A stretch of DNA of 64,000 bases from Pseudobdellovibrionaceae bacterium (GTDB taxonomy: Bacteria; Bdellovibrionota; Bdellovibrionia; Bdellovibrionales; Bdellovibrionaceae). Position 1 is the first letter of the stretch. Every line of letters starts with the position of its first letter. Location of the stretch: positions 682,001-746,000 of the forward strand of contig JAHBUS010000001.1 in NCBI GenBank assembly GCA_019637955.1, given 5' to 3'. Positions 2,307 through 36,335 of this stretch are shown here, piece by piece. The notes under the pieces were generated by a model that was not told the origin of the DNA, did not search any database, and saw only the letters and a program-made list of their open reading frames with translations. A program made the translations under genes and the position numbers.

Positions 2307-3887
2307 TTAGAACACCGAGAATTGGGTGTTGGCGCGGATCGCGGCGTTGTGACCGTAAACATCCGTCGTGAAGCGAATGATCTGATCGCTGCCGTAGTGG
2401 CTGGTGATCGGGAGCATGTACACGGGGATCGTGTTTTTCACTTCAACGGGAGTCTCTTTATCCAAGACTTCGCCAGGGCGAACCACGTGGTTCTCGATGG
2501 CCATGCGGTCCCACTTGGTTCCCGCCAAGATGTACTCGGCGAGATCGATGGGTTTTTCAACCCGCACGCAGCCCGAGCTGCGCAGACGGTTCTCTTCGTT
2601 GAAGAGGTCGCGCTCGCCGGTGTCGTGCAAGTAGATCGCTTCGCCATTCGTGAGGGCGAACTTCACCACGCCCAAGGCGTTGTAGTAGTTCGGCATCTGA
2701 CGGATGTAGAACCCGTTGCCGCTCGACGACGTGATGTTGTGCCAGTCGATTTGCGAGGGGCTGTAGCGGGTGCGGAAGTTCTCGCTCACAACGATGAAGT
2801 TGTTTTGCGCGAAGTAGTTCTCCACTTCCCAGTAACCGAGATTGCGGATGATCTCGACTTTATCCTTGATGAAGACCGTCGGGGGAACGGTCCAGTAAGG
2901 ATTCAAGATGACTTGGTAGATCTTGTCCTGCATCGAAGGCGTTTTGCGCTCGACGCGGCCGTTGATCGTTTTGAAGTTGAAAACCACGGGGTTGGCTTGG
3001 CTGCGATCGATCAGCAAGAAGTTCGAGAACGCGAGGTTCACGAAGATGTAGCGGCCGGTCGGATCTTGCGGGAGCCAACGGATTTTTTCGAGATCCGCAC
3101 GGACCTGCTCGATGCGCTCCGTGAGCGGCGTCTCGAGATATTTCTGAGTCGCGCCGCCAGGAGAAACCACGACGTCGGGTTTCATTTTCAGCTGGCGCTG
3201 AACATCGGCCACGGCCGCAGCGGTTTGCTCGTCAAAGCGCGCGTCCATATTGTCGATCTTAAATCCCAACAGAGCCAAGCGGGCCTTGAGTTTCGAAACC
3301 GCGGGGTCGGTCACGCCCATTTTCAAGGGCTTTTTGAACGTGCCGATGGGAGCCCAAGCGTCGGTGCGCTGGATCTCTTTCAAGCGGTTCAACAAGCGCA
3401 CGAGCATGCGGTAGTCGATGATTTGCGGGGCCAGCAAGTTGACGAGAGTCTCGTTGGAACCGGCCGACTGCGCCACCGCCGCGCGGATTTTTTCGTCCGA
3501 CAGCGATTTTTTGGTGAAGCGAATGTCGCTCGAAACTTCGGCGCCGCTCAGGCGGCCCGTGTAGAGCTGACGAGCGATCGCGTTGAAGAGCGGCATCACG
3601 GCCGCGCGAGCCTGCTCAGGAGCCATCATGCGAACTTGGTTGATCGTCATCTGTTCAGACGAGGTGATAAACAAGCCATGGGCTTCGGGCACAGTGGCGA
3701 CAAAGTCGATCATCTGTGCGAGCTCTTCAGCTTTGAGGTCCGCCCAAGGGTCCACTCGCGGAGTGGGAGAAGGGCGCGCCGGGGCTGGCGTTCCAGGTCG
3801 TCGGGCTGTCTGAGCGCGGGCCGTCGCGGCTGCCGCCATGATCAGAACAGATCCGAGTAAAACAGCGTTACGCAGGTTGCGATTCAT
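2307..3887 (-). CDS. L,D-transpeptidase, YcbB/LdtD-like
   Basis: This 526-residue exported protein has a signal peptide (residues 1-26, ending ARAQ), an alpha-helical region, a peptidoglycan-binding-like segment around residues 190-255, and a C-terminal YkuD catalytic domain. The catalytic residues appear as H421 in YLHDTGERDLF and C440 in RSSGCVRVE, matching the family's S-x-G-C signature. Such enzymes make 3-3 crosslinks in murein or attach proteins to it. Length and domain order resemble E. coli YcbB. The start is the ATG at 3887 after a purine-rich GGGGGATTATCC. In a predator this could serve self- or prey-wall remodelling, which is inference. Confidence 0.92.
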   Translation of the reverse strand: MNRNLRNAVLLGSVLIMAAAATARAQTARRPGTPAPARPSPTPRVDPWADLKAEELAQMIDFVATVPEAHGLFITSSEQMTINQVRMMAPEQARAAVMPLFNAIARQLYTGRLSGAEVSSDIRFTKKSLSDEKIRAAVAQSAGSNETLVNLLAPQIIDYRMLVRLLNRLKEIQRTDAWAPIGTFKKPLKMGVTDPAVSKLKARLALLGFKIDNMDARFDEQTAAAVADVQRQLKMKPDVVVSPGGATQKYLETPLTERIEQVRADLEKIRWLPQDPTGRYIFVNLAFSNFLLIDRSQANPVVFNFKTINGRVERKTPSMQDKIYQVILNPYWTVPPTVFIKDKVEIIRNLGYWEVENYFAQNNFIVVSENFRTRYSPSQIDWHNITSSSGNGFYIRQMPNYYNALGVVKFALTNGEAIYLHDTGERDLFNEENRLRSSGCVRVEKPIDLAEYILAGTKWDRMAIENHVVRPGEVLDKETPVEVKNTIPVYMLPITSHYGSDQIIRFTTDVYGHNAAIRANTQFSVF

Positions 3888-3994
3888 GGATAATCCCCCT
3901 TTGGATTAATGAAACTGACGCAACGTGTAATACAGTTGACGCGGAATGGCAAATTCCGTCACGACTCTGCAATCTTTACAGGTAAACCGCGGAC

Positions 3995-5884
3995 TTAGCG
4001 GCCCGAAGGGAAATACAGTTTGTTGTCCCAAAGTCCCTGGCTGAAGTACTGCCGGGTGGCCTCGAGCTTTTTGAGAAGATCGGCGCGAACCTGCGGATCT
4101 TCCACCTCTTTTGCGGGCTCGGGGGGCTTTAAAGACAGATGGTCCTCAAGGGCATACAGATGAACGTCGCCCTTGCCGTCCATGGTGAGACGGTGGGTCT
4201 TCTCCACCAGCGTGTAAAAACCCTCCGATTGAAAGACCACGTACCGGTCGCCCGCGCGAAAAACCGAGCGGCCCATCAGATTGTGCGAGGCAAAGTCTTG
4301 ACCCAAAAAGTCGAGCACCGAAGGAATGAGATCGATGTGCTGAACGGGTGCTTTGGTGTCGATCGCGGGCCACTTCGAAATGGCCGGATGAAAAAAGATC
4401 AGCGGCACCCGGTACTGTCCGAGTTCATTTTGATAACGGGGGCGCACCGGCTTGTAGGTGTGATCGGCCGTGATGATAAAAAGCGTGTCTTGATACCAAG
4501 GTTCTTTTTCGGCCGCCTCGAAAAACTTGCGAAGCGCGCCGTCGGTGTAGCCGATCACCTCGTGGATCTCATTCGTTCCCTTGGGGTACACGCCTTGCGC
4601 GCCCGCCGGCACTTTAAACGGATTGTGCGAAGTCAGCGTGAAGGCCACCGCGGTGAAAGGCGTCTGCTGCGTGCCGATCTCTTTGACCATGTTTAAAAGA
4701 AAGGGCTCGTCCCAGATGCCCCACGTACCGTCGTGATCGCCTTTGTCGGGATACTCGTTCGCACCGTAATAGCGCTGGATCCCCGCGCTCTTCATAAACT
4801 GATCGAAGTACATCGTCCCGTTGTCGCCACCGTGGTAAAAAGCCGACGAGTAGCCGTAGGACCCAAGGATCGTCCCCCAACCGTAAAAGGTGTTGGTCGC
4901 GTACTGCGAGCTGATGAAAGGCTCGGACATCAACGCGGGCACGCCGCCCAAAAGCGAAGCGATGCCTTCAATACTGCGTCGGGCGTTGGCAAAGGCATTG
5001 GTGAACAAAAGTCCGCGCTGCGAGATCTCGTCTAAAAAAGGCGTGTAGCCTTTGTCTCCGTGCGGGCTCCCCATGTGATCCAGCGTGAAGCTCTCGAGAA
5101 TCAAGACCACCACGTTTTGCGGCTTTCGCGGCCGCAGGGCCTGGATCATCGACTCTCCCGGGAGCGCGCCGTTCATCAACGCGAGCATCTCCTCATCGGG
5201 CATGAACTTCTCGCGCGGCAGTCCCGCGCGGCGAAGCGATTGAATCAACGAGAAGCTCGAGTTGAGAGTCAGTTGATTGAGAACGGGATTGGCAAAAACC
5301 TGCGCGTGCGCGAAGCCGATGGGCTTTTTCTGCAAACCCCCACGCGCCGCGATCACCAATACGATCAGAGCGGCGAAACCCATCACGAATCTCGGCGCGC
5401 GCGAGAACCGCGGCGCCACCCGTGCGCACCGGCGCGTCCACCACCAAGAGGCCACCAGATAAACGAGCATCAAGAGCGTGCTGATCGAAAGCAGCGGAAT
5501 GTACTCGAGAATCGTCGCCCAGAACTTTCCTTTGACCTCGGCCGCGATCAAGAACGACTGCACGTTAAAGCGACGGCCGGTGAACTGAACGTACTCCACT
5601 TCGCCAAGATTCAGGATCAAGAACGGAACGTTCAGAAGAGCGAACAAAAAAGCGGCCGGCCGGCGCACGTCTCTCCCCGCCACCAAGCCGAGGGTCATCA
5701 AGATCAGGGCGGGAATCGTGAGAATCGCGATCACGCTCAAATCGAAGCGAAGCCCGTAGATGAACGTTAAAAAGAGATCGCCGCCCGGAAGGCCCTGATA
5801 GAGGCTTTGATTCCAAACCAGGAAAAGCAGACGGATCGCGGAGTAAAAGAGCAGCGTAAAAAAAATGAGACCCGCAAAGAGCAT
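3995..5884 (-). CDS. membrane sulfatase-fold transferase (LTA synthase family)
   Basis: Five hydrophobic segments fill residues 1-165, followed by an extracytoplasmic alkaline-phosphatase/sulfatase-fold domain, the architecture of lipoteichoic acid synthase and phosphoglycerol or phosphoethanolamine transferases. The metal-ligand motif VLILESF, a candidate Ser nucleophile in RRSIEGIASLLGG, and ITADHTY near residue 470 are visible. At 629 residues it matches that family's size. The nucleophile is Ser where LtaS has Thr. A Gram-negative owner would more likely use it for glycan or lipid decoration than for teichoic acid; the substrate is unknown. The ribosome site before 5884 is weak. Confidence 0.85.
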   Translation of the reverse strand: MLFAGLIFFTLLFYSAIRLLFLVWNQSLYQGLPGGDLFLTFIYGLRFDLSVIAILTIPALILMTLGLVAGRDVRRPAAFLFALLNVPFLILNLGEVEYVQFTGRRFNVQSFLIAAEVKGKFWATILEYIPLLSISTLLMLVYLVASWWWTRRCARVAPRFSRAPRFVMGFAALIVLVIAARGGLQKKPIGFAHAQVFANPVLNQLTLNSSFSLIQSLRRAGLPREKFMPDEEMLALMNGALPGESMIQALRPRKPQNVVVLILESFTLDHMGSPHGDKGYTPFLDEISQRGLLFTNAFANARRSIEGIASLLGGVPALMSEPFISSQYATNTFYGWGTILGSYGYSSAFYHGGDNGTMYFDQFMKSAGIQRYYGANEYPDKGDHDGTWGIWDEPFLLNMVKEIGTQQTPFTAVAFTLTSHNPFKVPAGAQGVYPKGTNEIHEVIGYTDGALRKFFEAAEKEPWYQDTLFIITADHTYKPVRPRYQNELGQYRVPLIFFHPAISKWPAIDTKAPVQHIDLIPSVLDFLGQDFASHNLMGRSVFRAGDRYVVFQSEGFYTLVEKTHRLTMDGKGDVHLYALEDHLSLKPPEPAKEVEDPQVRADLLKKLEATRQYFSQGLWDNKLYFPSGR

Positions 5885-9606: not shown

Positions 9607-9640
9607 AACAAAAAGGCCCTCAAGGGGCCTTTTGTTTTTT
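9607..9640. terminator. bidirectional terminator between grxD and the vWA gene
   Basis: The hairpin AAAGGCCC-TCAA-GGGGCCTTT is followed by TTGTTTTTT on the plus strand and by TTTTTGTTTT on the minus strand. It separates the convergent ends at 9572 and 9665. Confidence 0.88.
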
Positions 9641-9664: not shown

Positions 9665-10672
9665 TTAGCTTCCGCTGGGGAAGGTCGCGGCTTCGTAGTA
9701 CACGTTCACTTTGGTGCCGTTCGGCTGAACCGACCACTCGATCTCGTCGCCCAGAATGAGAGCGTTGCGAGCGGGATCAAAGATCCAACCTTTTTTGTAA
9801 TCTTGCGGAATGATCTGCGAACCGAAGCTGACCTGGATCGTCTCGGGGATCGGCGGCCGGCTGAGGTAGATCACGTTTCCGATGAAGCGCACCAGGTCGT
9901 CGGCGATGGTCGAAATGCGATCACCAAACTGCGGATCGCAAAGCGAGAACACGTTTTTTCCCGCGTTCGGCATCATGCCCAAGAAGCTTTCGATCTTGGT
10001 CGGATTGCCTTCGTCGCGCGAGCAGTTGTTCACGCCCGTGGGAACCACGACGCCGTAACCGATGAACTTCTCCTTGCGGCCCTTGAGGCTGAGCATGAAG
10101 TCGAACATGTCTTGCGCGCTCATCGAGCTCTGATCCTCGGCATCCGTGATGAACACAACGGCCAAGTGAGCATTGGGTCGGTAGAAACCGGCGTTCTCGC
10201 CCGTCACCAAAGGTGCGCTCAGGGCGGCGCGGATCGGGTCAAAAACCTTTTCGGTCGCCGAGCCATTGGTGCCCACGCGCAGGGCGCGCGAAAGAACCTG
10301 AATCAAGTTGGGCGTTGAGCGTTCAACGAAGGTGGGCGTTCCCATCAAACGGCCGCAGCAGGGACTGCCGCTCCACCCGCCATCCATCGACGTGTTCACG
10401 ACCCCGATGTGGTAGTCGATGTTGGCGCGTTTGGTGAACGCGGCCAAGAAGCGGTCGATGTTGCGGATCAAGTTCGTTTGGTGGGTCGACATACTTCCGG
10501 AGTCGTCGACCACGAACAGAATGTCGACCTGGGGATCGAAGACTTCGGTGCCCCCGTCCGTATCGACCTTCTCGTTCTGATCGTTCGGCTTGGGAATCAA
10601 GTGGTTCGCCTCGGGCGAGCACGCGCCCAGGGCCAAGAATCCAAAAACCAAAACCGATAGCAGGCGTTTCAT
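9665..10672 (-). CDS. vWA-domain lipoprotein of the gliding-type operon
   Basis: The ATG at 10672 follows GAGGTG and gives 335 residues with a lipoprotein signal (LGAC, Cys18). A von Willebrand A domain begins near residue 48; its MIDAS metal site is visible as DDSGS (56-60), with later conserved strands such as AVVFITDAED. vWA domains bind protein ligands through a divalent cation, so this is probably an envelope-anchored adhesion or assembly subunit. It is the last gene of the 20351-to-9665 operon, starting two bases after the preceding stop. A pair of cysteines in GSPCCG is notable. Its exact partner is unknown. Confidence 0.87.
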   Translation of the reverse strand: MKRLLSVLVFGFLALGACSPEANHLIPKPNDQNEKVDTDGGTEVFDPQVDILFVVDDSGSMSTHQTNLIRNIDRFLAAFTKRANIDYHIGVVNTSMDGGWSGSPCCGRLMGTPTFVERSTPNLIQVLSRALRVGTNGSATEKVFDPIRAALSAPLVTGENAGFYRPNAHLAVVFITDAEDQSSMSAQDMFDFMLSLKGRKEKFIGYGVVVPTGVNNCSRDEGNPTKIESFLGMMPNAGKNVFSLCDPQFGDRISTIADDLVRFIGNVIYLSRPPIPETIQVSFGSQIIPQDYKKGWIFDPARNALILGDEIEWSVQPNGTKVNVYYEAATFPSGS

Positions 10673-10674
10673 GA

Positions 10675-12285
10675 TCACCTCTTCACCTGGCAGGCTTTTT
10701 TAACGTCGACTTTGTAATTCGAAAGTTCGTCAAACCAGACTTCATTGTTCGCCACGGGGAACTTCATGACATCTTGGCTGCTCGAGCCCGTGGTGCCGAC
10801 TTTCACGTCGCCGCCGCCGGTGGCTTTGGCCTTGGCGAGTTTGTCCGCCAAAGATGTTTGCTGAAGAACCTCGGCTTCCACGATGTGCATTTTGGCCAAG
10901 ATCTTACGCGTGTCCTCGACTTCGTTTTTCGCCATCTCTTGAACGCGCGCGAGCGTGGCCGATTTGGCCATGCGGGCACGGCCCATGAGAGACTGCTTCA
11001 AATTCTCGAACGACGCTTGCAATCCGGTTTGCGCCAGCGATTTGGCGTAGAGCTCTTCGGCCACTTTCGCCTCGCGCTCCAGATCGGCTTGAGCTTTTGA
11101 AAGCTCGCGCAGACGCTGATCGCGGGTGATCTGACGGGGCAGACTTTGCGAGTCTTTGCCGAGCTCTTCCCACTTCACTTGACGGGTGCGGACCTCGTTG
11201 ATCACGCGGGTGACCGCGGGAGTCTCGGGCTCTTGCGCGAGTTTTTTCAAAGCCTCGGTGCGGCCTTTGAACTGCTCGGGGAAAGCCTGCAGGCTCTTCA
11301 CGACGCCGGGGTAATCGCAAACTTTGAGCTGCGCAAGCGCGCGCACGAAGTAGCTTTCTGCACCCACTTGACCTTTGAACACGGGGTTCACCAGGGTCTG
11401 CGTGATTGCGAGCGCGTTTTGCGGCTCACCCTTACGGATGAACGACCACGCGGCCTCCTCTTGAGCGTCCAACCAGTAGTCAGAGCCCTTGGGGATTTTG
11501 TTGTAGTAGCGGATCGAAGCGTCGAAGTAACCGTTCTGGAACAAGAGGCGCGCGGCCGTCAGGTTCAAAAGGTCTTGCGACACGGGGCTGTTCTTGGTTT
11601 TCAAGAGAGCGGCCATGATCTTGGCGGCTTGATCGGGCTGATCGCCGAGCGAGTACGCCAAAGCCAAGTTCCACTCAACCAGCGCACGCTCCACCGAGTC
11701 GGTCGGTGCACGTTTCGAGAGGGCCTCGAGATCTTTGATGCCTTGCTTTTGCGTCACCTGACGGGTTTTGGCTTTCACTTCGTAGTTCAGACCGAAGATC
11801 TCGGTCCAAGCGTCGTTCCAGCTCAGGAGCGCGATTTTCCACGCGGGGTGGTTTTCGTTCGCGGCCTCTTTGAACAGGCTGAGCAAATGAAAGTGGATCT
11901 TCTTGGGCTCGCGAGTCGCGAAGAGCTCTTCAAGACCGGTCGTTGTCAGACCGCTTTTGAATTTGAGCAGAGCGCGCAAAGCCTGACCGTTGGCCGAGCG
12001 GTCAAACGCCGTTCCGCCAAAGGCCGATTGGTACTGAAGCAAGCCTTTGTCCCACTGCGCTTGTTCCAAAAGGCGGAAGAACGCGTTTTGTTCCGAGGTG
12101 GGGCGCCCGTCTTGAAGACTGCGAAGCGTGTCGACCAGAAAGCTCTGCTCGCGCGCGGTTTTCACTTCGGCCGCTCCCGCCGACGGCTTGCTGCCGCCGT
12201 CGAGCAGGCTCTCAAGATCTTCGGCCGCAAAAGCCGGAGACGTGAGCGCGAGCGCCGAAGCCAGGTAAAGGGCTCGTTTCATCAT
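10675..12285 (-). CDS. periplasmic TPR-like protein of the gliding-type operon
   Basis: The start at 12285 is chosen because ATG overlaps the upstream TGA (ATGATGA). The 536-residue product then begins with a signal peptide ending PAFAAED. The body is almost entirely helical, with alanine/leucine repeats typical of tetratricopeptide or Sel1-like arrays, including LEQAQWDKGLLQYQ, FQNGYFDASIRYYNKI and EEAAWSFIRKGE. A Lys/Arg/Glu-rich helical segment lies near the C-terminus. In Myxococcus, TPR proteins such as GltE/AglT sit in the periplasm between motor and outer membrane. I infer a similar scaffold role. Confidence 0.86.
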   Translation of the reverse strand: MMKRALYLASALALTSPAFAAEDLESLLDGGSKPSAGAAEVKTAREQSFLVDTLRSLQDGRPTSEQNAFFRLLEQAQWDKGLLQYQSAFGGTAFDRSANGQALRALLKFKSGLTTTGLEELFATREPKKIHFHLLSLFKEAANENHPAWKIALLSWNDAWTEIFGLNYEVKAKTRQVTQKQGIKDLEALSKRAPTDSVERALVEWNLALAYSLGDQPDQAAKIMAALLKTKNSPVSQDLLNLTAARLLFQNGYFDASIRYYNKIPKGSDYWLDAQEEAAWSFIRKGEPQNALAITQTLVNPVFKGQVGAESYFVRALAQLKVCDYPGVVKSLQAFPEQFKGRTEALKKLAQEPETPAVTRVINEVRTRQVKWEELGKDSQSLPRQITRDQRLRELSKAQADLEREAKVAEELYAKSLAQTGLQASFENLKQSLMGRARMAKSATLARVQEMAKNEVEDTRKILAKMHIVEAEVLQQTSLADKLAKAKATGGGDVKVGTTGSSSQDVMKFPVANNEVWFDELSNYKVDVKKACQVKR

Positions 12286-13034
12286 AGCAACCATCCCATT
12301 TGCACCGAGGCCAGTGCGAGGTCCAAGTTGATCGGGCCGTTGAAATAAGACGCTTCGTAGCGCTGGTACGCCATCTCGAGGCGCGTGCTGAACCGAGGGG
12401 TGAACCAAAGGCCCACGCCGCCGCCGCCAGTGTACGTCGAGGTCGAACCCGAGCTCAATTGAACTTGGCCCGCACCGAGCATCACGTAAGCATCGAACTG
12501 CACGACCGAAGAATCCAGCCAGTTGATTTTACCGTAGATCGGCGACCAGTTGACCAAGGCGAGCGCCTCGCTCTTGGGGTAGTTGATCTCGGGGATCACG
12601 GCCGACGGGTTGTTCGGATCTTTGAGGTACTCTTGGTAAGCGCGCTCGGTCATCGCCTCGCCTTCGGGAGTCAGGCGGTTGTACGACGACTTGTATTTGG
12701 CACCGAACGCCCAGCGGGGCGTGAGGTGGTAGTACACGTTGAGGCCCAAGTTCTGCGTGCGCACATACGTGTCGCCGCCAAAAGTGCCGGCGAATTCGGG
12801 CGCGATCTCAAAACGATTGCGAAGGCTCACGGTGCGCGACTGCACCACGGTGGTTTCGACTTCGGGGTTCAGGGCCTGCGCTTTTTCGAGCAGGATCTTA
12901 TTTCCGCCGAGACCGTCGAAATCATCTTCCGACGCGATGGCTGCGGCAGGTGCGGGCGCCGCGCTCTGAGTCTCAGGAGCCGCCAGGGCCAGGCTCGACA
13001 ACAGGGACAAAGTCAGCAAGAGAGATTTGTTCAT
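12282..13034 (-). CDS. outer-membrane beta-barrel protein of the gliding-type operon
   Basis: The 250-residue product has a signal peptide (residues 1-18, ending LALAAP), an Ala/Pro stretch, then alternating amphipathic strands with aromatic girdles such as YVRTQNLGLNVYYHL, WAFGAKYKSSY and FSTRLEMAYQRYEA, and a C-terminal strand. This is the pattern of a small barrel like those encoded with AgmX/PglI proteins; GltA, GltB and GltH of Myxococcus are barrels of this kind. The ATG at 13034 directly abuts the preceding TAA, and GGATCC acts as the likely ribosome site. Confidence 0.85.
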   Translation of the reverse strand: MNKSLLLTLSLLSSLALAAPETQSAAPAPAAAIASEDDFDGLGGNKILLEKAQALNPEVETTVVQSRTVSLRNRFEIAPEFAGTFGGDTYVRTQNLGLNVYYHLTPRWAFGAKYKSSYNRLTPEGEAMTERAYQEYLKDPNNPSAVIPEINYPKSEALALVNWSPIYGKINWLDSSVVQFDAYVMLGAGQVQLSSGSTSTYTGGGGVGLWFTPRFSTRLEMAYQRYEASYFNGPINLDLALASVQMGWLL

Positions 13035-14234
13035 TTAGTTGGATCCTTTCACGGGTGTCGGCGAAGGAGTGGGGGCCGGGAGCGCTTTGACTTTCACGCG
13101 CAGGGTGAACATGCGAGTCGACGTTTGGGTGTCCGAACGATCGGAGTTGCGGCCGGTGGCGTTCAGGTTCCAAGCGAAGTTCTGCTCACTCGCGGTTCCC
13201 GTGGGAACCCAGCGAAGCGCGCAGCTCAAAACACCGGGACGGGCCGCTTGGCAGCGGATATCGGCGCCTGCGGGGAGCGTGCTAGCGAGCTGCACGTCGA
13301 TCATCGCCTCGCCTTTTTCGTCAAAGACGAGAAAGGGAACGACGTTTTCTTGACCGGGCGTGAGCTCGGCGGTCTCAACCCAAGAGATATTGAGGTTCGA
13401 GAGCTTCGTGTAAACTTTGGTTGAGAAGTTCGCATCGACGCTCGATTGATTGAAGCGGTTCACCGCACGCAAGCGGAAGCCCGCCATGTCCGACCCTGAG
13501 GTGAACTCGGTGTTGTTCAGACGGACCGTCACGCGGTAGGTCCACTCTTTTTTAATCGGGTCATTCGAAGACACCTGCACGATCGTGTAGGGCGCCAGCG
13601 ACTTGGTGTTGAGCACCGTCGGCGGGAAGATCAAAAGCGAAGGTCCGTCACCCACGTCCGAACCACCATCGGGATCGTAGACAACCACGTTGAGCGAGGT
13701 GTCCGCGCCTTCACGCACCAGCGCGTTCGGGCTGGTGTTGGTCACCGACTTCACTTCGGGCAAAGACATTTTGCGGTGAACGATCACGTTCACTTCGGTC
13801 TGTCCCAAAAGTTGAGGGCGGTCGGGATTGGCGGGTGTGGCGATACTGTGAATCACCAAACGCATTTCGCGGTAAGTGCCATCAAAGACCGTCCCTTTGG
13901 GCGGCATCCACTTCATGACGCCGGTCGCGGGGTCGAACGTCGCCCCGGGAAAGGCGTCGATGTTGGCGATAAAGGTTTCTTCCAATTTGTAGCCGGGCTC
14001 GAGCACGGTCACGTTAAACTGCAAAGAGTCTTCGCGGTCTTCCATGAACGAGGCGTTCTGCGGTCCGCGCACCAAAACTTTTTCGGTGGGCTGAGGCTTG
14101 TCCGGCTTTTGCTGCGGCGGAATGCCTTCACGGATGGGATCGGGTTGGCCCGCGAGCGGATCTTGTTCAAATTTGAGCGAGCAGCCCGCTGTCATCAAGC
14201 CCGCGACAACCGCGAGCATCAAAAAGTTTTTCAT
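13035..14234 (-). CDS. lipoprotein with cadherin/Ig-like periplasmic domains
   Basis: The product (399 residues) carries a lipobox MTAGC (Cys18). Repeated patterns such as FNVTVLEPGYKLEE, FDPATGVMKWMPP and LNVVVYDPDGGSD resemble the strands of cadherin-like or putative Ig domains in bacterial surface proteins. The phrase FDPATGVMKWMP is typical of cadherin-like repeats. It ends in a Pro/Ser/Thr tail. It lies between the TonB-like gene (four-base gap) and the barrel gene (no gap), suggesting it bridges the periplasm or is displayed at the outer membrane as part of the same machine. Confidence 0.83.
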   Translation of the reverse strand: MKNFLMLAVVAGLMTAGCSLKFEQDPLAGQPDPIREGIPPQQKPDKPQPTEKVLVRGPQNASFMEDREDSLQFNVTVLEPGYKLEETFIANIDAFPGATFDPATGVMKWMPPKGTVFDGTYREMRLVIHSIATPANPDRPQLLGQTEVNVIVHRKMSLPEVKSVTNTSPNALVREGADTSLNVVVYDPDGGSDVGDGPSLLIFPPTVLNTKSLAPYTIVQVSSNDPIKKEWTYRVTVRLNNTEFTSGSDMAGFRLRAVNRFNQSSVDANFSTKVYTKLSNLNISWVETAELTPGQENVVPFLVFDEKGEAMIDVQLASTLPAGADIRCQAARPGVLSCALRWVPTGTASEQNFAWNLNATGRNSDRSDTQTSTRMFTLRVKVKALPAPTPSPTPVKGSN

Positions 14235-14238
14235 TCAA

Positions 14239-15363
14239 TCACCCCTGTCCTGATCTTCTGAGTGTAAACGGATAGCTCACTTTGACGTCCACGCCGCCAT
14301 CGGGAAGCGGAAACTTCCACGATTTGAGGCGCATGACGATACAATCTTCAACGGTTTTCGCTTTGAGCGTGGTGCTGGCGACCGAAGCCTCTTTCACCAT
14401 GCCATTGCCGCCGATCGTGAAATCGACAGCCACGCGCCCGTTCAAAGTCGCATCGCTTTGCAGACCTTGCTCGTAACAGAAACGAACTTGGCCTTGGTTG
14501 CGGTTGATGACGGCCGCGATTTGATCGCGGTCGAGACCTTTGGCCACGCTGGCCTCCGCGCCCAGCGGAATCGCGCTCACGCCGGTCGAGCCGGTCAGCG
14601 CGAGTTTGCCGTAACCGGCTTCGCCGCCGCCTTTACCTTTGGTTCCATAGCCGCCCGCGCCTTGAACATTCGCGCCCGCACCCAAAGGAGCGGAGACGAT
14701 GCCCTTGGCGTAGAGCGAGGTCTGCGTGCCGCCGCTGCCTTGCGTGCCGCCAAGACCGGGGCCCGCGGTGGTTTGAGCCGCGCCTAAATTCAGGCCGCCG
14801 CGCTGTTTGCTCGAGTTCAAGCTGCCCAGGGCCGAAAGGGCGCCCATGCGTTTGATCGAAGCGGTTTTGGTCGCGGTCTTGTTAACGGCGTCATTGGTGG
14901 CCGTGGCCGTGACGACCGTTTTCGGCGTCGGCGGCTTGACCATGGATTTCACGATTTTGACAACTTGCTGTTGAAGCTCTTCTTCACGCTTGGGCGTCAT
15001 CTCGGCGACATTGCGCAAAGCCCCCAGCAGCGAGAAGACCATCAGACCCAAGATCGCCATCGTGAAGTACAGAACGCGGCGGTCTTCGTCGCGGTCGCCT
15101 TCGTCTTTGACGGTCTCGCCGACATTTTCGATCAGGCTCAGGTGACCAAGCTCACCGACGAGCAAGGGCTTCTTGTTCAAACCGTCGCGACTCAGTTCGC
15201 CGAGCGATTCGAACGCGATTTTCTTTTTCTGGAGCGCCTCGGTGTTGTTGACGAGCTCCAGACGGCGGGTGTCGGCGCGGCGGATGACTTGAACGGGTTC
15301 ACCCGACCAAGCAAACGCGCGCAAGACGCGGCCTTCATTGTCTTGCAGAACGAGTTTTTCCAT
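14239..15363 (-). CDS. AgmX/PglI C-terminal domain protein (TonB-like transducer)
   Basis: A cytoplasmic N-terminal region of about 145 residues precedes a single membrane helix (VLYFTMAILGLMVFSLLGAL). A Lys/Thr/Pro stretch, a Gly/Ala/Thr-rich linker and a C-terminal TonB/TolA-like domain of about 95 residues follow. The C-terminal domain holds the conserved cysteine pair in VRFCYEQGL and VEDCIVMRL and the core GRVAVDFTIGGNG, hallmarks of the AgmX/PglI (GltJ/GltG) family. These proteins couple the TolQ/TolR-type motor to periplasmic and outer-membrane parts. The start overlaps the preceding stop by one base (TAATG). No FHA domain or zinc finger is evident, unlike some relatives. Confidence 0.9.
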   Translation of the reverse strand: MEKLVLQDNEGRVLRAFAWSGEPVQVIRRADTRRLELVNNTEALQKKKIAFESLGELSRDGLNKKPLLVGELGHLSLIENVGETVKDEGDRDEDRRVLYFTMAILGLMVFSLLGALRNVAEMTPKREEELQQQVVKIVKSMVKPPTPKTVVTATATNDAVNKTATKTASIKRMGALSALGSLNSSKQRGGLNLGAAQTTAGPGLGGTQGSGGTQTSLYAKGIVSAPLGAGANVQGAGGYGTKGKGGGEAGYGKLALTGSTGVSAIPLGAEASVAKGLDRDQIAAVINRNQGQVRFCYEQGLQSDATLNGRVAVDFTIGGNGMVKEASVASTTLKAKTVEDCIVMRLKSWKFPLPDGGVDVKVSYPFTLRRSGQG

Positions 15364-15626
15364 TAGTCACGCTCCGCGGAGTTTTCGAGACGGTCTTTAA
15401 AATCGGTGCGAACGCCGATGAGCGCATCGAGAACTTTGTCTTCTTCGACGGTGGTCACCGACTCATCCGAGAAGTGGTACTTCCCTTGAACGAGCAGGTC
15501 TTCGAAGCTGTGCTCGGTCTGCGACGAACCGATCGCGGTTTTGGTTTTCTCTTGAGGAGCGGCCGACGGTGCGGCCACAGCTCCAGCAGAGAACAAAAGC
15601 ATCGAGGCGAGGATCATCTTGATCAT
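15363..15626 (-). CDS. small exported protein of the gliding-type operon
   Basis: The 87-residue product starts at an ATG overlapping the upstream TGA and preceded by AGAGG. It has a signal peptide (ending AVAAPSAA), then an acidic mature part including FEDLLVQGKYHFSDE and VLDALIGVRTDFKDR. No family is recognised. The fixed position between the long TPR gene and the TonB-like gene, with overlaps on both sides, argues for a structural or chaperone role in the same complex rather than an independent function. Confidence 0.78.
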   Translation of the reverse strand: MIKMILASMLLFSAGAVAAPSAAPQEKTKTAIGSSQTEHSFEDLLVQGKYHFSDESVTTVEEDKVLDALIGVRTDFKDRLENSAERD

Positions 15627-18604
15627 TGTTTAACCTCTTGGACAGGCTCCGCGGTGGGTAAGGACTTGAGGCGGCCCTCAAGATACTGAACCATCGCGAA
15701 GTTTTTTGATTTCTTTTCAAGTTCCAGCAAACGATTCGCGGCCGAGCGGTCCAGAGGACTCTGGCGAACGGCCTCGCGCGCAGCTTGCAGCTCTTTCACG
15801 TCGGGCAGACCCAAGACGCTTTGCGAGTTTTTTGCTTCAAGACCGGCGAAGAACGCCTGATCGGCTTCGGGAGCCGCGACTTTGAGAGCCGCGAGCTCTT
15901 GCGCGATCAAAGTGCGGAACTCCGCACCCTCTTGAACCGACTTTTCGAGATCGGCCTTCCAGTTGGAACCCGACCAGAACTCTTTCACTTTGCTCTGAGC
16001 CTGCTCCGCCTTGATCTTAAAGGGCGAGGCTTGCTGACTCAGGATCTGCATGTACTCCTGCTCCTCTTCGGGCTTCAGGCCTTCGGGCATCGGAAGCGAC
16101 ATCAACTCTTGGTAAAAACGGTCCGACTCACGCGCAACGAGATCGATGGTCACGAGCTGCGACGTCCAGTCCCCGCTTTGAATCGCACCCGCCGCCATTT
16201 TTTCGGCCTTGGTCAACTCGGCGGCGCGGTCCTTGATGCTTTTGCCCAGCGTTTTCTGGTTCTTCGAATCGATTTGCATCCCGGCGAGCTTGGCTTTTTG
16301 CGCGTTGTACTCTTTCAAGAGTTGAACGCGGGTCAAAAGACGGCCCCAATTGGTGTTTTGCACTTTGGTGTCGCTCGACGCTTTTTTCAGAATCTGATCC
16401 GTGGGCGTTTTGCTGTAAGCCTCGGTGTACAACCGCGCGAGCAAGTCGGGCGCCTGATCGAGGATCGACTTTTGCGCCTGGATCTCTTTCACGGGGTCAT
16501 TGCTCCGACGAACGATCTCGGACGCCACCGCTTGGCGCGCTTCGGGATCTTTGGTCGTTTTGATGTACTGCTGATAGAGCGGCATGGGGTTTTGACCTGC
16601 CAGATCCGCGTAGATCGCCAGCTTCAGCGTTTTTTGCTCGGGCGCTTGATCTTTGAGCTGCATTTGCGACGTCGCGGTGTAGGCACCGGCGAAATCCAGC
16701 TTCAGCTCCGAGAGCCAAGCTTTGCGGCCCAGCGCGAACTCGCGGTCTTCAGGCTTCAAATCTTTTTGCGCCAGAAGATCATCGGCCGCGTTGCGAGCGA
16801 CGTCGAACTGACGTGTCTTCTCGGCCAGGATCAATTTGTTCTTCAAGTAGATCACGCGGTCCGAAGCCGAAGCTTCGCGCGCGTTGAACTGACCCAAGAC
16901 CGCGAGGGCGGCGGCGGGGTCATTGGGAGCCAAGGCGGCCGAGCGCGAGAGCAGGGCTTTCTGCCCGACTTGATTGAACTCTAAGGCGTTGTCTTTAAAA
17001 GCGCCGGCGTAGTCTTTGGACCAAGCGATCATCTTGTCTTCGTCTTTGAGCATGCCCAAAGCATCGAGCGAAAGATCCGCCGCTTGTTTGCGAACAGCTT
17101 TATTGCCCTTAGGATCCAGCGCGAGCTTGCGCATCTCTTCCGAGGCGAGCGCGTACTGATTTTGATCGTAAAGACGTTTGGCTTTTTGGTACGAAACTTC
17201 AAAGGTCTTGGTGCCTTTGCGGGTCTCTTTGACGTACAGGTCTTGCGCGCGCATCAAGAGCGCGTCATCTCCCGACGCTTCGGCATTCTCGATATTGGTG
17301 AGAAGCGCGACTTCGAGTTTGTCGTCAGTAGAGCCGGCCGTTTTGGCATCGGGCTTCTGAGTTTTGATCGCCGCCACGGCCGCCTCTTGACGGGCCATCG
17401 CGGTTTTCCAGTCTTTGAGCTCGCGGGCCACTTGCGCGCCCCACAGGTTCATTTCGACGTCGTTCGGAATGGCTTCGAGGTACAAACCGTAAGCCTTCGA
17501 GAGCTCAGCCGTGGGGGCTTTTTTCTCGGCTTGGTTCCACACCACGATAAATTGGCGGTACAGCTTTTGCGATTCGCCGCAATCGGCTTTGCCGCAGCCT
17601 TTGAGTTCTTTCCAGAGAGCGGTCGCCGACTCCATGTCTTGCAGAGCCAAGTCACGGGCACCCGTCTCCAAGAGCAAGGGCGCACGGTGGAGCAAGACTT
17701 CGAGGCGCTCGGCGGGAGCCGATTGATGGCCATAAACGAAGTTCCAAACCATCAACGCTTCTTTTTTGCGGCCCACGCGCTCGGCTTCCGCCGCGAGCAG
17801 GGTCACGTTCGAAACGCGGGTGTTCTCGGGACTCAGCGTGAACAACTGTTCAACATCGGCCTTTTCGAGATTTTTCTTCGACAGGAAGGTCGCCAAGTCG
17901 CGGCTCACTTCCTCTTTAAATTGAGGATCGATTTGGTTCGAAGCCACGCCCGTGCGGGTGAGCAAAGCGGGCGTTTTCAAAATCGTGATCAGCTCTTGGG
18001 TCGCACCGTTGATATCGCCCAAGTTGAACGAGCTCCAAGCACTTCGGTACGCGGCCAGGCCACGCGACGAGGCGGTCGGGATTTTGAGAACTTCTTGGTA
18101 GCCTTTGCGGGCTTCGGCGAATTGGTTCTTTTTGAAAGACATTTCGGCCAAAGACAAAGAGGCCTCGGCGCGGGCGTTCGGGTCCTGCGCTTCGTTGGCG
18201 ATCTTGCCATAGAACGAGCGGGCTTCGGTTTCGTTGCCGGTCATCTGATAGAGGTGGCCCAGTTGGATCATCACTTTGCCGCGATTCGCCGCCGGAACGC
18301 GGTCCAAAACGTCGCGGTACAAGCGGATGGCTTTTTCGCGGTCTTTTTGACCCGCGGTGCAGGTCGTACAACCTTGCTCCAGTTCGGCCATCGAGTTGAC
18401 TCGCGCACGCTCGGCGAGCAGGTCGGCCAACCGCAAGGTCACCGACACTTTCGACGAGTCATTGGGAGCCAGGCTCATGTTCACTTGGCTGAGTTTGTCG
18501 ATCAAGAGATCGCGGCTTCCCGAATCCATCTGAGCGGAAACGGCAAATGACGACAAGGTGATTGCCGCCACGAGCAGAGAACGGTGTGTGAGTTTAATTT
18601 TCAT
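15623..18604 (-). CDS. long periplasmic TPR protein (AgmU/GltD-like)
   Basis: The 993-residue product has a signal peptide ending AVSAQ and is otherwise nearly all helical. TPR-like units recur, such as EKAIRLYRDVLDRVPAANRGKV, LGHLYQMTGNETEARSFYGKI and AEMSFKKNQFAEARKGYQEV. A Cys pair (CTTC) lies near residue 80 and another near KGCGKADCG. Long exported TPR proteins (AgmU/GltD in Myxococcus) are central periplasmic parts of Glt complexes, and length, export signal and neighbours agree with that role. The start has GGGGCTTAGGG upstream. The assignment to AgmU in particular is inference. Confidence 0.88.
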   Translation of the reverse strand: MKIKLTHRSLLVAAITLSSFAVSAQMDSGSRDLLIDKLSQVNMSLAPNDSSKVSVTLRLADLLAERARVNSMAELEQGCTTCTAGQKDREKAIRLYRDVLDRVPAANRGKVMIQLGHLYQMTGNETEARSFYGKIANEAQDPNARAEASLSLAEMSFKKNQFAEARKGYQEVLKIPTASSRGLAAYRSAWSSFNLGDINGATQELITILKTPALLTRTGVASNQIDPQFKEEVSRDLATFLSKKNLEKADVEQLFTLSPENTRVSNVTLLAAEAERVGRKKEALMVWNFVYGHQSAPAERLEVLLHRAPLLLETGARDLALQDMESATALWKELKGCGKADCGESQKLYRQFIVVWNQAEKKAPTAELSKAYGLYLEAIPNDVEMNLWGAQVARELKDWKTAMARQEAAVAAIKTQKPDAKTAGSTDDKLEVALLTNIENAEASGDDALLMRAQDLYVKETRKGTKTFEVSYQKAKRLYDQNQYALASEEMRKLALDPKGNKAVRKQAADLSLDALGMLKDEDKMIAWSKDYAGAFKDNALEFNQVGQKALLSRSAALAPNDPAAALAVLGQFNAREASASDRVIYLKNKLILAEKTRQFDVARNAADDLLAQKDLKPEDREFALGRKAWLSELKLDFAGAYTATSQMQLKDQAPEQKTLKLAIYADLAGQNPMPLYQQYIKTTKDPEARQAVASEIVRRSNDPVKEIQAQKSILDQAPDLLARLYTEAYSKTPTDQILKKASSDTKVQNTNWGRLLTRVQLLKEYNAQKAKLAGMQIDSKNQKTLGKSIKDRAAELTKAEKMAAGAIQSGDWTSQLVTIDLVARESDRFYQELMSLPMPEGLKPEEEQEYMQILSQQASPFKIKAEQAQSKVKEFWSGSNWKADLEKSVQEGAEFRTLIAQELAALKVAAPEADQAFFAGLEAKNSQSVLGLPDVKELQAAREAVRQSPLDRSAANRLLELEKKSKNFAMVQYLEGRLKSLPTAEPVQEVKQ

Positions 18605-18660
18605 CCCTAAGCCCCCTCAGACCCCGGTGCGGCTACGGGCCGCGCCGGCATTTGGATGTG

Positions 18661-19158
18661 TTACTTCGCGAGAACAGCGAAACGAATGTCGCTAAACCCC
18701 GCGTGCGCACAGGCCAAAACAATTTGATTCAAGAATTCGTATTTCACGCGGCGGTCAGCTTGGACCGTCACGATCCCCGGAAACTCCGCGCCCGAGCGCT
18801 CCGCCGAAAACTTCTGACGAAGCTCCAGCAGTGCCGCCACGAGGCCATCGCCCGACACGGTTTTGTCTTCGAGGTAGATTTGCCCCTCTTCAACCTTCAC
18901 GACGGGGTTGCGCTCCAAAAGCTCGGTCAGCGCCGCTTTCGGCAGCTCGGTGTCTTTACCGATCGACAAGAGGTCACCCGTGCTCGAAAAGCTCATGAGC
19001 AAGAAGATCACCAAGATCGAAAACGCATCCACGAGCGCCGTCAAAAGAAGATCGGACGCCATGTTGCGCTTGTGTTCGTGTCCTTTGGGATTCAAGAGCG
19101 AACCCGACGCCAACTGGCCGGTCAGGGTGCTCTGTCCAAGAACGCTTTGATTCATCAT
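18661..19158 (-). CDS. TolR/ExbD-type motor subunit (AglS-like)
   Basis: The 165-residue protein has a cytoplasmic N-terminus, one membrane helix (about 38-58) and a periplasmic domain of the ExbD/TolR type. The proton-binding Asp of the family appears as D44 in LLTALVDAFSILVIF. The N-terminal extension of about 30 residues is longer than in E. coli TolR. GGGAG precedes two adjacent ATG codons (19158 and 19155). It follows another ExbD-like gene and a TolQ-like gene, the same one-plus-two arrangement as AglR-AglQ-AglS, in which the Q/S pair lines the proton channel. Confidence 0.92.
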   Translation of the reverse strand: MMNQSVLGQSTLTGQLASGSLLNPKGHEHKRNMASDLLLTALVDAFSILVIFLLMSFSSTGDLLSIGKDTELPKAALTELLERNPVVKVEEGQIYLEDKTVSGDGLVAALLELRQKFSAERSGAEFPGIVTVQADRRVKYEFLNQIVLACAHAGFSDIRFAVLAK

Positions 19159-19182
19159 ATATCTATCTCCCGTCGAAACGGC

Positions 19183-19641
19183 TTAGAGAGGAACGACGCC
19201 GAGGTCGTTCAGTCCCGCTTTTTTAAAACGGTCCATCAGATCGATAATGGTTTCGTAAGACGTCTGCGCTTTGGGTTGGATCAAGGCCGTTCGCAAATCA
19301 GGCTCGGACTCTTTCATCTTCGCCATGACTTGATCGAACTGTTCGGCGTTGACCGCACCATCGCTGCCCGCTGCGATCGTCAATTTTCGCAAGCCAGCAG
19401 GGAGTCTCGAGGCGTCTTTCGCTTCGAGGGTGAGGTCCCCTTTTTCGCCCATGAAAACCCAAATGATGGGTTTCTTTTCCGTCTCGGCCGCCGGCTGCCC
19501 GCCGACCGCTTGTTTGACGTTCATGGTACCGATGTTGAGCCAAACGGCCGTGAGCAACAAGAAGCAGATGCAAACCGAAAGCAAATCGATGAACGGAACC
19601 AAGTTCAATTCAAAATCGAGATGTTTGGTGGGTTTGCGCAT
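19183..19641 (-). CDS. TolR/ExbD-type motor subunit (AglQ-like)
   Basis: A short basic N-terminus precedes a membrane helix with the family Asp (D19 in LNLVPFIDLLSVCICF), followed by a periplasmic domain of about 115 residues; total length is 152. The motif NLVPFIDLL is the classic ExbD/TolR signature. The ATG overlaps the TolQ-like stop by one base (TAATG), so the two are translationally coupled. Having two ExbD paralogues with one TolQ is characteristic of Agl-type engines. Confidence 0.93.
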   Translation of the reverse strand: MRKPTKHLDFELNLVPFIDLLSVCICFLLLTAVWLNIGTMNVKQAVGGQPAAETEKKPIIWVFMGEKGDLTLEAKDASRLPAGLRKLTIAAGSDGAVNAEQFDQVMAKMKESEPDLRTALIQPKAQTSYETIIDLMDRFKKAGLNDLGVVPL

Positions 19642-20351
19642 TACGCGTTCGCTTCCCGGCTCGACTCAGATCCTTTGCCATTGGCGCGGAACGAAGTGAA
19701 ACCAGCGGGTTCATACGTGTAGCTGAGCCAGTTGAACGCTTTCAAAGCCGCGGTGTTGAGATCTTCCGACAAGATCGTCGCGCGGTTCTGCAAAATCGCG
19801 TAGGCGATCAACGCCGGGATGGCGGCGATCAGACCGTAAGCGGTACAGTTCATCGCTTCCGAGATACCGGCCGCGAGCAAAGCCGCTTTTTCGGCGGGAG
19901 CCGCGAAGGCAACGGCCGCGAACGACTGGATCATGCCCGTGATGGTTCCGAGCAGACCCATCAGAGTCGCGACGTTCCCGAGCATGGTCAAGAAACCGGT
20001 GCGGCGGTCGATGAGAGCGTTTTCGTGAATGAGGACTTCGTCCATTTTGCCTTGGATCTCTTCTTTGCCGCCGAGGTTTTTAGCGGTCTTTGCGCCCACC
20101 AGAACCGCGCGTGCGACAGGCTGAGTGCCTTCCATGGCTTGGGCTTTCTCGACAACCGACGAAATCTCGCCGCGGCGAACGGAGTCTTCAAAGCTCATGA
20201 CCACTTCGCCTTGGTTGGCTTTGCGTTTCACGAACAGAGCGTAAACGCGCTCAACGATGATTGAGATCGAGACGATTTGGATGACCATGATCGGGTACAT
20301 CCAGATACCGCCGTGTTGGAAAGCGACTGCGATTTTCGACAAAAACTCCAT
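19641..20351 (-). CDS. TolQ/ExbB/MotA-type motor subunit (AglR-like)
   Basis: This 236-residue inner-membrane protein shows the ExbB/TolQ plan: one helix near residues 15-35, a cytoplasmic region, then two helices including the conserved LMGLLGTITGMIQSF and AMNCTAYGLIAAIPALIAY. The Thr/Gly-rich motif lines the proton path with the Asp of the ExbD partners. It is the first gene of the ten-gene operon and has a strong GAGGGGGAG ribosome site. Power from the proton gradient would be passed to the TonB-like, TPR and barrel proteins encoded downstream. Confidence 0.94.
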   Translation of the reverse strand: MEFLSKIAVAFQHGGIWMYPIMVIQIVSISIIVERVYALFVKRKANQGEVVMSFEDSVRRGEISSVVEKAQAMEGTQPVARAVLVGAKTAKNLGGKEEIQGKMDEVLIHENALIDRRTGFLTMLGNVATLMGLLGTITGMIQSFAAVAFAAPAEKAALLAAGISEAMNCTAYGLIAAIPALIAYAILQNRATILSEDLNTAALKAFNWLSYTYEPAGFTSFRANGKGSESSREANA

Positions 20352-35654: not shown

Positions 35655-36335
35655 TCACACGATCCGGTAACCGACGCCCGGCTCGGTGATCAGATGCTGG
35701 GGATTGGCCGGATCTTTTTCGATTTTCTTGCGCAGGTGACCCACGTAAATCCGCAGGTAATGCGTTTGATCCTTGGCGCCCGGCCCCCAAATTTCACTCA
35801 GCAGCTGCGTCTGCGGCACCACCCGTCCGGCCTGGCGCACCAATCGAGACAGAACCTCGTACTCGGTGGCGGTGAGCTTCACCACCACCCCATCGACCTT
35901 GACTTGGTGATGGCTCAGATCCACTTCGAGCGGTCCGGATTTAAAAACGGGCATGGCCTCTTGCGCCTGCGTCTGCCTCAAAGCCGCACGGATGCGCGCC
36001 ATCAACTCGGGCAGGCTGAAGGGTTTGGTCAGATAATCGTTGGCGCCCGCATCCAGAAGCTCCACCTTCGAGGCCTCATTGTCGGACACGGTCAAAATCA
36101 GAATTGGAATCGTGGTCCATTCGCGCAGTTTTTTTAAAACGTCAAGACCTCCCATATCGGGAAGCCCCAGATCCAAAATGATCAGATGAGGGTGCGACTC
36201 CTCCGCCGCCAACAGTCCCCGGCTGGCCGCACCGGCCTCGAACACTTGAAAGCCTTGGGCACTCAGGTTCATCCGCAAAAGATTTCGAATCGCGGGCTCA
36301 TCATCGATGATGAGGATCTTTGTCTTGCTCTCCAT
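35655..36335 (-). CDS. kdpE: KdpE response regulator
   Basis: The 226-residue OmpR-type regulator has a receiver with acidic pocket DDE (11-13) and phospho-acceptor D55 (IILDLGLPD), and a C-terminal winged helix ending with the conserved YIRGVGYR-like VGHLRKKIEKDP and GVGYRIV. It activates the kdp operon under potassium limitation. The ATG overlaps the kdpD stop by one base. As last gene of the operon it makes the system self-reinforcing. Confidence 0.95.
   Translation of the reverse strand: MESKTKILIIDDEPAIRNLLRMNLSAQGFQVFEAGAASRGLLAAEESHPHLIILDLGLPDMGGLDVLKKLREWTTIPILILTVSDNEASKVELLDAGANDYLTKPFSLPELMARIRAALRQTQAQEAMPVFKSGPLEVDLSHHQVKVDGVVVKLTATEYEVLSRLVRQAGRVVPQTQLLSEIWGPGAKDQTHYLRIYVGHLRKKIEKDPANPQHLITEPGVGYRIV

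What the first reader, a model, noticed from the sequence alone, without database searches (positions are those of the whole stretch)
9665..20351. Ten-gene Agl/Glt-like trans-envelope motor operon
One TolQ-like, two TolR-like, an AgmX/PglI-type transducer, two TPR proteins, a small exported protein, a cadherin-like lipoprotein, a barrel and a vWA lipoprotein are joined by overlaps or tiny gaps. The content matches Myxococcus gliding machines, but the vWA protein and the 87-residue protein are not standard named parts.
Basis: partly seen in the sequence, partly recalled or inferred. Interest (0 to 1): 0.72.

Follow-up and report, generated by a model that had tools for sequence, protein, structure and literature searches.

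The report
Gliding-motor operon carrying its own adhesin
Ten tightly packed genes encode a proton-driven machine spanning both membranes, of the kind some bacteria use to glide, together with what looks like the surface adhesin it would pull on; it matches a set of genes already known in the predatory bacterium Bdellovibrio, and the candidate adhesin is the interesting part.

Summary
In detail: ten minus-strand genes (9665-20351), gaps -4 to +56 nt. The order AglR-ExbD-ExbD-GltD-GltF-GltG-Ig lipoprotein-barrel-GltC-vWA lipoprotein recurs in 23 of 23 distinct outside loci of this clade with room to show it. It is an Agl/Glt-type system, not Tol-Pal or Ton: the genome has a separate Tol operon and the TolQ-like gene groups with Bdellovibrionota Agl genes. 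It is the ortholog of B. bacteriovorus Bd2368-Bd2377, a published 'gliding cluster' whose proteins rise at prey exit (PMC12546842). Two reader points change. The 87-residue protein is GltF/CglF-like. The vWA protein is no stray extra but a conserved lipobox-bearing MIDAS protein with a predicted integrin-I fold, homologous to the invasion adhesin Bd0875. My reading: the motor drives this adhesin along the surface; identities and orthology are shown, adhesion and force transfer inferred. Against a fixed exit role, only 31 of 66 family genomes carry this type. New member of a known kind.

The parts
19641..20351 (-). AglR-like (TolQ/ExbB/MotA family) proton-channel subunit, 236 aa
   Evidence: Pfam MotA_ExbB 2.2e-24 over cut-off; groups with the HD100 Bd2377-position gene, 93/81 support
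19183..19641 (-). AglQ/S-like ExbD/TolR protein 1, 152 aa
   Evidence: Pfam ExbD 4.5e-17 over cut-off; Asp in the TM helix read from sequence
18661..19158 (-). AglQ/S-like ExbD/TolR protein 2, 165 aa
   Evidence: Pfam ExbD 1e-13 over cut-off
15623..18604 (-). GltD-like exported TPR protein, 993 aa
   Evidence: TPR hits below cut-off; family HMM matches the TPR protein of the Anaeromyxobacter Glt cluster, 97 bits
15363..15626 (-). GltF/CglF-like small exported protein, 87 aa
   Evidence: NCBIfam CglF 8.1e-5, below cut-off; family HMM hits Anaeromyxobacter CglF, 28 bits, itself over the CglF cut-off; shared FED motif region
14239..15363 (-). GltG-like TonB/TolA-type transducer, 374 aa
   Evidence: NCBIfam GltG 2.5e-40 (below equivalog cut-off), myxo_SS_tail 5.8e-32 over cut-off
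13035..14234 (-). lipoprotein of tandem Ig/cadherin-like domains, 399 aa; no Myxococcus counterpart found
   Evidence: Cys18 invariant in 10 of 10 rows; model pLDDT 83.2, pTM 0.58; Foldseek to protocadherin-15 and Ig chains
12282..13034 (-). GltA/GltB-type outer-membrane beta-barrel, 250 aa
   Evidence: NCBIfam TIGR04565 OMP_myx_plus 6.4e-29 over cut-off
10675..12285 (-). GltC-like exported TPR protein
   Evidence: NCBIfam GltC 5.9e-21, below equivalog cut-off, residues 237-533 only
9665..10678 (-). vWA/MIDAS lipoprotein, candidate surface adhesin, 337 aa; last gene
   Evidence: Pfam VWA 9.6e-5, just below cut-off; CglD 2.9e-12, MIDAS adhesin 6.8e-10, both below cut-off; MIDAS and lipobox residues in 29 of 29 rows; I-domain fold Z 16.3
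9611..9633 (.). inverted repeat with T-rich tails on both strands, candidate terminator after the operon
   Evidence: 24 terminator-like sites found, 20.2 expected by shuffling, so weak

Best explanation
This is an Agl/Glt-type trans-envelope force machine orthologous to B. bacteriovorus Bd2368-Bd2377. AglR with two ExbD-type proteins forms a proton-driven inner-membrane motor. GltG, anchored in the inner membrane with a TonB-like C-terminus, carries the work into the periplasm. GltD, GltF and GltC relay it to an outer-membrane barrel. The final product, a MIDAS lipoprotein, is the adhesin pulled along the surface, with the Ig-type lipoprotein as link or co-adhesin. The cell uses it for surface gliding, most likely during escape from spent prey. 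Shown by sequence: component identities, order, orthology, MIDAS and lipobox conservation. Inferred: complex formation, surface exposure, ligand binding, and gliding as the output.
For: Family hits. Ten-gene order in 23 of 23 outside loci with room. Ortholog in HD100 at the place of Bd2368-2377: AglR 68%, GltG 55%, vWA 42%. HD100 exit-phase rise: 9 of the 10 tags are in the paper's over-4-fold table (PMC12546842). In the sister operon, transposon hits in aglR (Bd1481) and in Bd1483, a cluster gene at the vWA's place, both weaken biofilm predation (PMC2277423; position). vWA: MIDAS D-x-S-x-S plus D and lipobox Cys in 29 of 29 rows, I-domain fold, homology over most of its length to Bd0875, whose MIDAS is needed for normal invasion (PMC11003981). 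M. xanthus Glt recruits the vWA protein CglB (review PMC13104615).
Against: No gliding phenotype of this cluster was found in the papers read. Luciano 2011 preferred Bd0828-0838 as the gliding machine. Deleting Bd1483 gave normal invasion. Only 14 of 24 genomes of the Bdellovibrio-type genus carry this type. GltG, GltC and CglF hits are under NCBI's equivalog cut-offs. No GltE-like gene sits in the locus. The usual MIDAS threonine position is not conserved.
Confidence: 0.7

Rival explanations
1. The machine moves or assembles a surface polymer (like the Myxococcus Nfs spore-coat system) rather than the cell; the vWA protein holds that polymer.
For: Nfs proteins are the closest homologues of Glt and do a non-motility job (PMC3169522); HD100 keeps four such operons with different expression times (PMC2797640).
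Against: No polysaccharide or coat gene lies in the operon; the sister operon's aglR transposon mutant points to biofilm predation.
Confidence: 0.15
2. It is a Tol-Pal or Ton-type envelope or uptake system.
For: AglR matches the TolQ (3.7e-23) and ExbB (7.6e-18) models, both below cut-off; the 2010 paper called these 'tonB-like/agl' operons.
Against: The genome has separate TolQ, TolA and TolB genes over cut-off in one operon, with a TolR just under it. Agl and core-complex genes are split from TolQ/ExbB/MotA at 99/99, on long branches. No TonB-dependent receptor is in the operon; GltG and OMP_myx_plus hits are specific to this kind.
Confidence: 0.04
3. The motor part is right, but the vWA protein is an assembly factor or force sensor facing the periplasm, not an adhesin.
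For: vWA folds also serve non-adhesive complexes (TFIIH rows at Z about 14); whether CglB and CglD face outward was unknown in 2015 (PMC4488436).
Against: Homology to Bd0875, which was detected on the predator surface at the prey junction; metal-site residues kept in 29 of 29 rows.
Confidence: 0.2

Closest known systems
B. bacteriovorus HD100 gliding cluster Bd2368-Bd2377
   Same: Same ten genes in the same order; AglR 68%, ExbD 56-58%, GltD 43%, GltF 56%, GltG 55%, barrel 47%, GltC 42%, vWA 42% identity.
   Different: Only sequence divergence; the Ig lipoprotein is down to 27%.
HD100 clusters Bd0411/0412-0421, Bd1473-1483, Bd0828-0838
   Same: Agl motor, GltD, GltG, barrel and GltC. The first has the same ten genes with its own vWA; the second has a vWA gene upstream of aglR.
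   Different: The third has two barrels, a gap where GltE would be, a longer GltG and no vWA hit.
Myxococcus xanthus AglRQS-GltA-K machine
   Same: Motor trio, GltC, GltD, GltF, GltG and a barrel; recruits a vWA adhesin, CglB.
   Different: Split over three clusters there; GltE, GltH, GltI, GltJ, GltK not seen in this locus; the window GltG is shorter (374 against 640 aa); here vWA and Ig lipoproteins are in the operon.
MIDAS adhesin Bd0875
   Same: hhalign probability 98.8 over 283 columns; lipobox and D-x-S-x-S.
   Different: Bd0875 is outside the operons; Ser stands where all 29 operon-linked rows have Glu.

Membership tests
Agl/Glt-type system (Luciano core: AglR,Q,S, GltD,E,G,C) | one TolQ-like and two TolR-like genes side by side | tested here: met
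Agl/Glt-type system (Luciano core: AglR,Q,S, GltD,E,G,C) | GltG with AgmX/PglI C-terminal domain | tested here: met
   myxo_SS_tail 109.7 bits against cut-off 40; GltG equivalog 138.7 against 650, not reached
Agl/Glt-type system (Luciano core: AglR,Q,S, GltD,E,G,C) | GltC and GltD | tested here: met
   GltC 5.9e-21, below equivalog cut-off; GltD by HMM match to the Anaeromyxobacter Glt cluster, 97 bits
Agl/Glt-type system (Luciano core: AglR,Q,S, GltD,E,G,C) | GltE in the cluster | tested here: not met
   GltD and GltF overlap by 4 nt, nothing between them; GltE elsewhere in the genome not searched. So filed as a relative of the core, not as a full copy of it
Agl/Glt-type system (Luciano core: AglR,Q,S, GltD,E,G,C) | drives gliding | not testable with these tools
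   needs mutants
NCBI equivalogs GltG, GltC, CglF, CglD | curated whole-protein cut-off | tested here: not met
   138.7/650, 74.8/450, 22.6/90, 45.2/400 bits
Ten-gene Bdellovibrionota Agl/Glt clade (with Bd2368-2377) | ten genes in this order | tested here: met
Ten-gene Bdellovibrionota Agl/Glt clade (with Bd2368-2377) | AglR groups with the Bd2368-2377 AglR | tested here: met
   93/81 support, 92% of bootstrap trees
Tol-Pal | TolQ/TolR over equivalog cut-off with TolA, TolB, Pal | tested here: not met
   window genes below cut-off; a Tol operon lies elsewhere
Ton system | TonB and receptor | tested here: not met
   TonB_C 17.6 bits against 24.6; tonB_Cterm 27.1, at its cut-off; no receptor in the operon
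MIDAS adhesin (NF052240) | equivalog cut-off 700 bits | tested here: not met
   38.6 bits
MIDAS-type vWA lipoprotein | D-x-S-x-S and distal D, lipobox Cys, I-domain fold | tested here: met
MIDAS-type vWA lipoprotein | canonical MIDAS Thr | tested here: inconclusive
   position 142 varies; Glu143 in 29 of 29 operon-linked rows

The most novel reading that the evidence does not exclude
In Bdellovibrionota each ten-gene Agl/Glt operon is a self-contained gliding machine with its own captive MIDAS adhesin. Predators keep several such machines and change them between stages of life in prey, so that the adhesin, not the motor, sets what the cell grips. This would fill the adhesin gap that a 2026 review lists as open.
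Probability: 0.4. Interest if true: 0.72.

Novelty: new member of a known kind. Interest (0 to 1): 0.46.

Why it matters
A 2026 review says the gliding motor, adhesins and force path of Bdellovibrio are a major open challenge (PMC13104615). The operon gives a concrete, testable list: a motor, a transducer, an outer-membrane route and one adhesin candidate, kept together in 23 of 23 loci. It also links two separate literatures, gliding clusters and MIDAS invasion adhesins.

Tried and rejected
Tol-Pal/Ton origin: rejected. Idea that the vWA gene is a stray neighbour: rejected; 0 of 62 other AglR loci (L044-L106 without L046, vWA HMM, flanks as held) have one, so the linkage is a feature of this clade, not of all Agl/Glt loci. 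Idea that the ten-gene type is essential for intraperiplasmic life: weakened. G008, a 2,657,893-bp single contig that I take for the epibiotic B. exovorus JSS (size recalled), has none of this clade and, in the one locus read, the Bd0828 type. But 10 of 24 genomes of the Bdellovibrio-type genus also lack the window type. NF033763 was guessed to be CglB; it is TraB, so that search told nothing. MglA: two PF00025 matches in the genome, one of them read as a small GTPase; identity as MglA not confirmed. The promoter scan found no sigma-70-like site. The vWA tree does not recover the window type as one clade (2 changes, one L034 row inside), so strict co-inheritance of vWA and motor is only roughly shown.
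Full report
Check of the observation. The ten ORFs are present at 9665-20351 on the minus strand, packed with gaps of -4 to +56 nt. Profile searches identify a MotA/TolQ/ExbB protein, two ExbD proteins, a GltG-type transducer with the AgmX/PglI tail, an OMP_myx_plus barrel, a GltC-type protein, TPR repeats in the 993-aa protein, and a vWA protein. Several of these hits are below NCBI's strict equivalog cut-offs (GltG, GltC, CglF, CglD), so the window genes are relatives of the Myxococcus parts, not the same equivalogs.

The 87-residue protein hits the CglF (GltF) model at 8.1e-5, and its HD100 ortholog at 2.6e-7. An HMM built from the Bdellovibrionota genes finds the Anaeromyxobacter CglF gene at 28 bits, and that gene is over the CglF cut-off. 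The C14-type GltF-position protein of HD100 had no CglF hit at E <= 0.01, so this part diverges fast. M. xanthus GltF is 89 aa and is listed between GltE and GltG (PMC3169522, section 6 read); here it lies between GltD and GltG. The vWA protein hits CglD and the Bdellovibrio MIDAS adhesin model.

Orthology. That fits the four published operons, given as Bd0412-0420, Bd0828-0838, Bd1473-1483 and Bd2368-2377 (PMC2797640, passages). The window locus matches the 2276-kb locus gene for gene. Ten genes fit the ten tags Bd2368-2377; that Bd2368 is the vWA and Bd2377 the AglR is my inference from order. It agrees with the 2025 proteome table, where the four proteins flagged as secreted (2369, 2370, 2373, 2374) fall on GltC, barrel, GltF and GltD. 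The window genome also has a second ten-gene locus matching the 392-kb one, and three further Agl/Glt loci, five in all.

Conservation. Among loci whose AglR falls in this clade or the related Oligoflexia group, 23 distinct outside loci had room for the whole operon and 23 of 23 show all ten genes in order. Eight more (L027, L029, L031, L033, L036, L041-L043) run off their contig. Three own-genome copies and two duplicates were left out of the count. I chose the G-handle loci by GltG length, not by vWA presence. The HMMs were trained on most of these loci; BLAST with own-genome queries alone gave nearly the same calls, the cadherin-like gene in L124 and two genes in L046 being found by HMM only. 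The window type, judged by AglR identity of 59% or more, is in 31 of 66 family genomes; 41 of 66 have the sister types, 51 of 66 either.

Phylogeny. In a 53-row AglR tree the window gene groups with its type (93/81), inside a ten-gene clade (99/98). Own TolQ, ExbB-like and MotA fall outside at 99/99, with a long-branch warning. The same genome has TolQ, TolA and TolB over cut-off and a TolR just below, in one operon.

The vWA protein. AlphaFold2 gives mean pLDDT 76.6. Its best matches are integrin I-domains (5hj2_A, Z 16.3, 189 residues, rmsd 3.3); other vWA proteins such as TFIIH subunits reach Z 14, so the fold alone does not show adhesion. Lipobox Cys, D-x-S-x-S and the distal Asp are present in 29 of 29 operon-linked rows (28 distinct) and in both Bd0875-type rows. 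Glu143 is in 29 of 29 operon-linked rows and Ser in the two Bd0875-type ones. Profile comparison with the HD100 Bd0875 gene gives probability 98.8 over 283 columns. Bd0875 needs its MIDAS for normal invasion and sits at the predator-prey junction (PMC11003981, passages). In the sister operon, Bd1481 (aglR) and Bd1483 transposon mutants both had weaker biofilm predation (PMC2277423, passages); deletion of Bd1483 left invasion normal.

Mechanism. By homology the AglR/ExbD trio is a proton motor, and GltG interacts with AglR in M. xanthus (PMC3169522). In M. [quoted passage not shown] the primary paper is not held). I infer the same layout here, with adhesin and Ig lipoprotein encoded in the operon.

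Function in the cell. The HD100 cluster rises at prey exit. It was also up in host-independent growth but not at 30 minutes of predation. Exit by gliding depends on cGAMP from Bd0367 (PMC9140294, passages). These make exit gliding the best guess; no direct test of this cluster was found in searches, whose listings I read, with passages of the papers named.

Novelty. The cluster is published as a gliding cluster. In those same searches I found no statement that a MIDAS lipoprotein is its constant last gene; the text seen calls Bd2368 only 'gliding cluster homology', and one paper names bd3099 as a vWA gene of the gliding clusters. Hence new member of a known kind, with an interesting adhesin lead.

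Noticed in passing
G000 C14 (L014/L025/L138), C3 (L016), C1:399 kb (L017), C1:861 kb (L018): Four more Agl/Glt loci in the same genome; the L018 type (781-aa GltG-like ORF) has no obvious counterpart among the HD100 matches listed.
   Followed up: partly
window 10250-10252 (vWA residue 143): A glutamate beside the usual MIDAS threonine position is invariant in 29 of 29 operon-linked vWA rows but Ser in both Bd0875-type rows; it may alter metal or ligand binding.
   Followed up: partly
L025:14878-16194: The C14-type vWA protein carries an insertion of about 35-45 residues that the window type lacks, perhaps akin to the cap described for Bd0875.
   Followed up: no
G008 (2,657,893 bp, taken for B. 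exovorus): No ten-gene-clade AglR, one Bd0828-type locus with two barrels: a possible link between the ten-gene type and life inside prey, but one genome only.
   Followed up: partly
window 2307-5884: An L,D-transpeptidase gene and a sulfatase-family gene next to each other on the minus strand.
   Followed up: no
window 36335-39016: KdpD-type sensor kinase gene.
   Followed up: no
G000:C14:68061-68465: OmpA/TraB-like match with one in-frame TGA, close to the C14 Glt locus.
   Followed up: no
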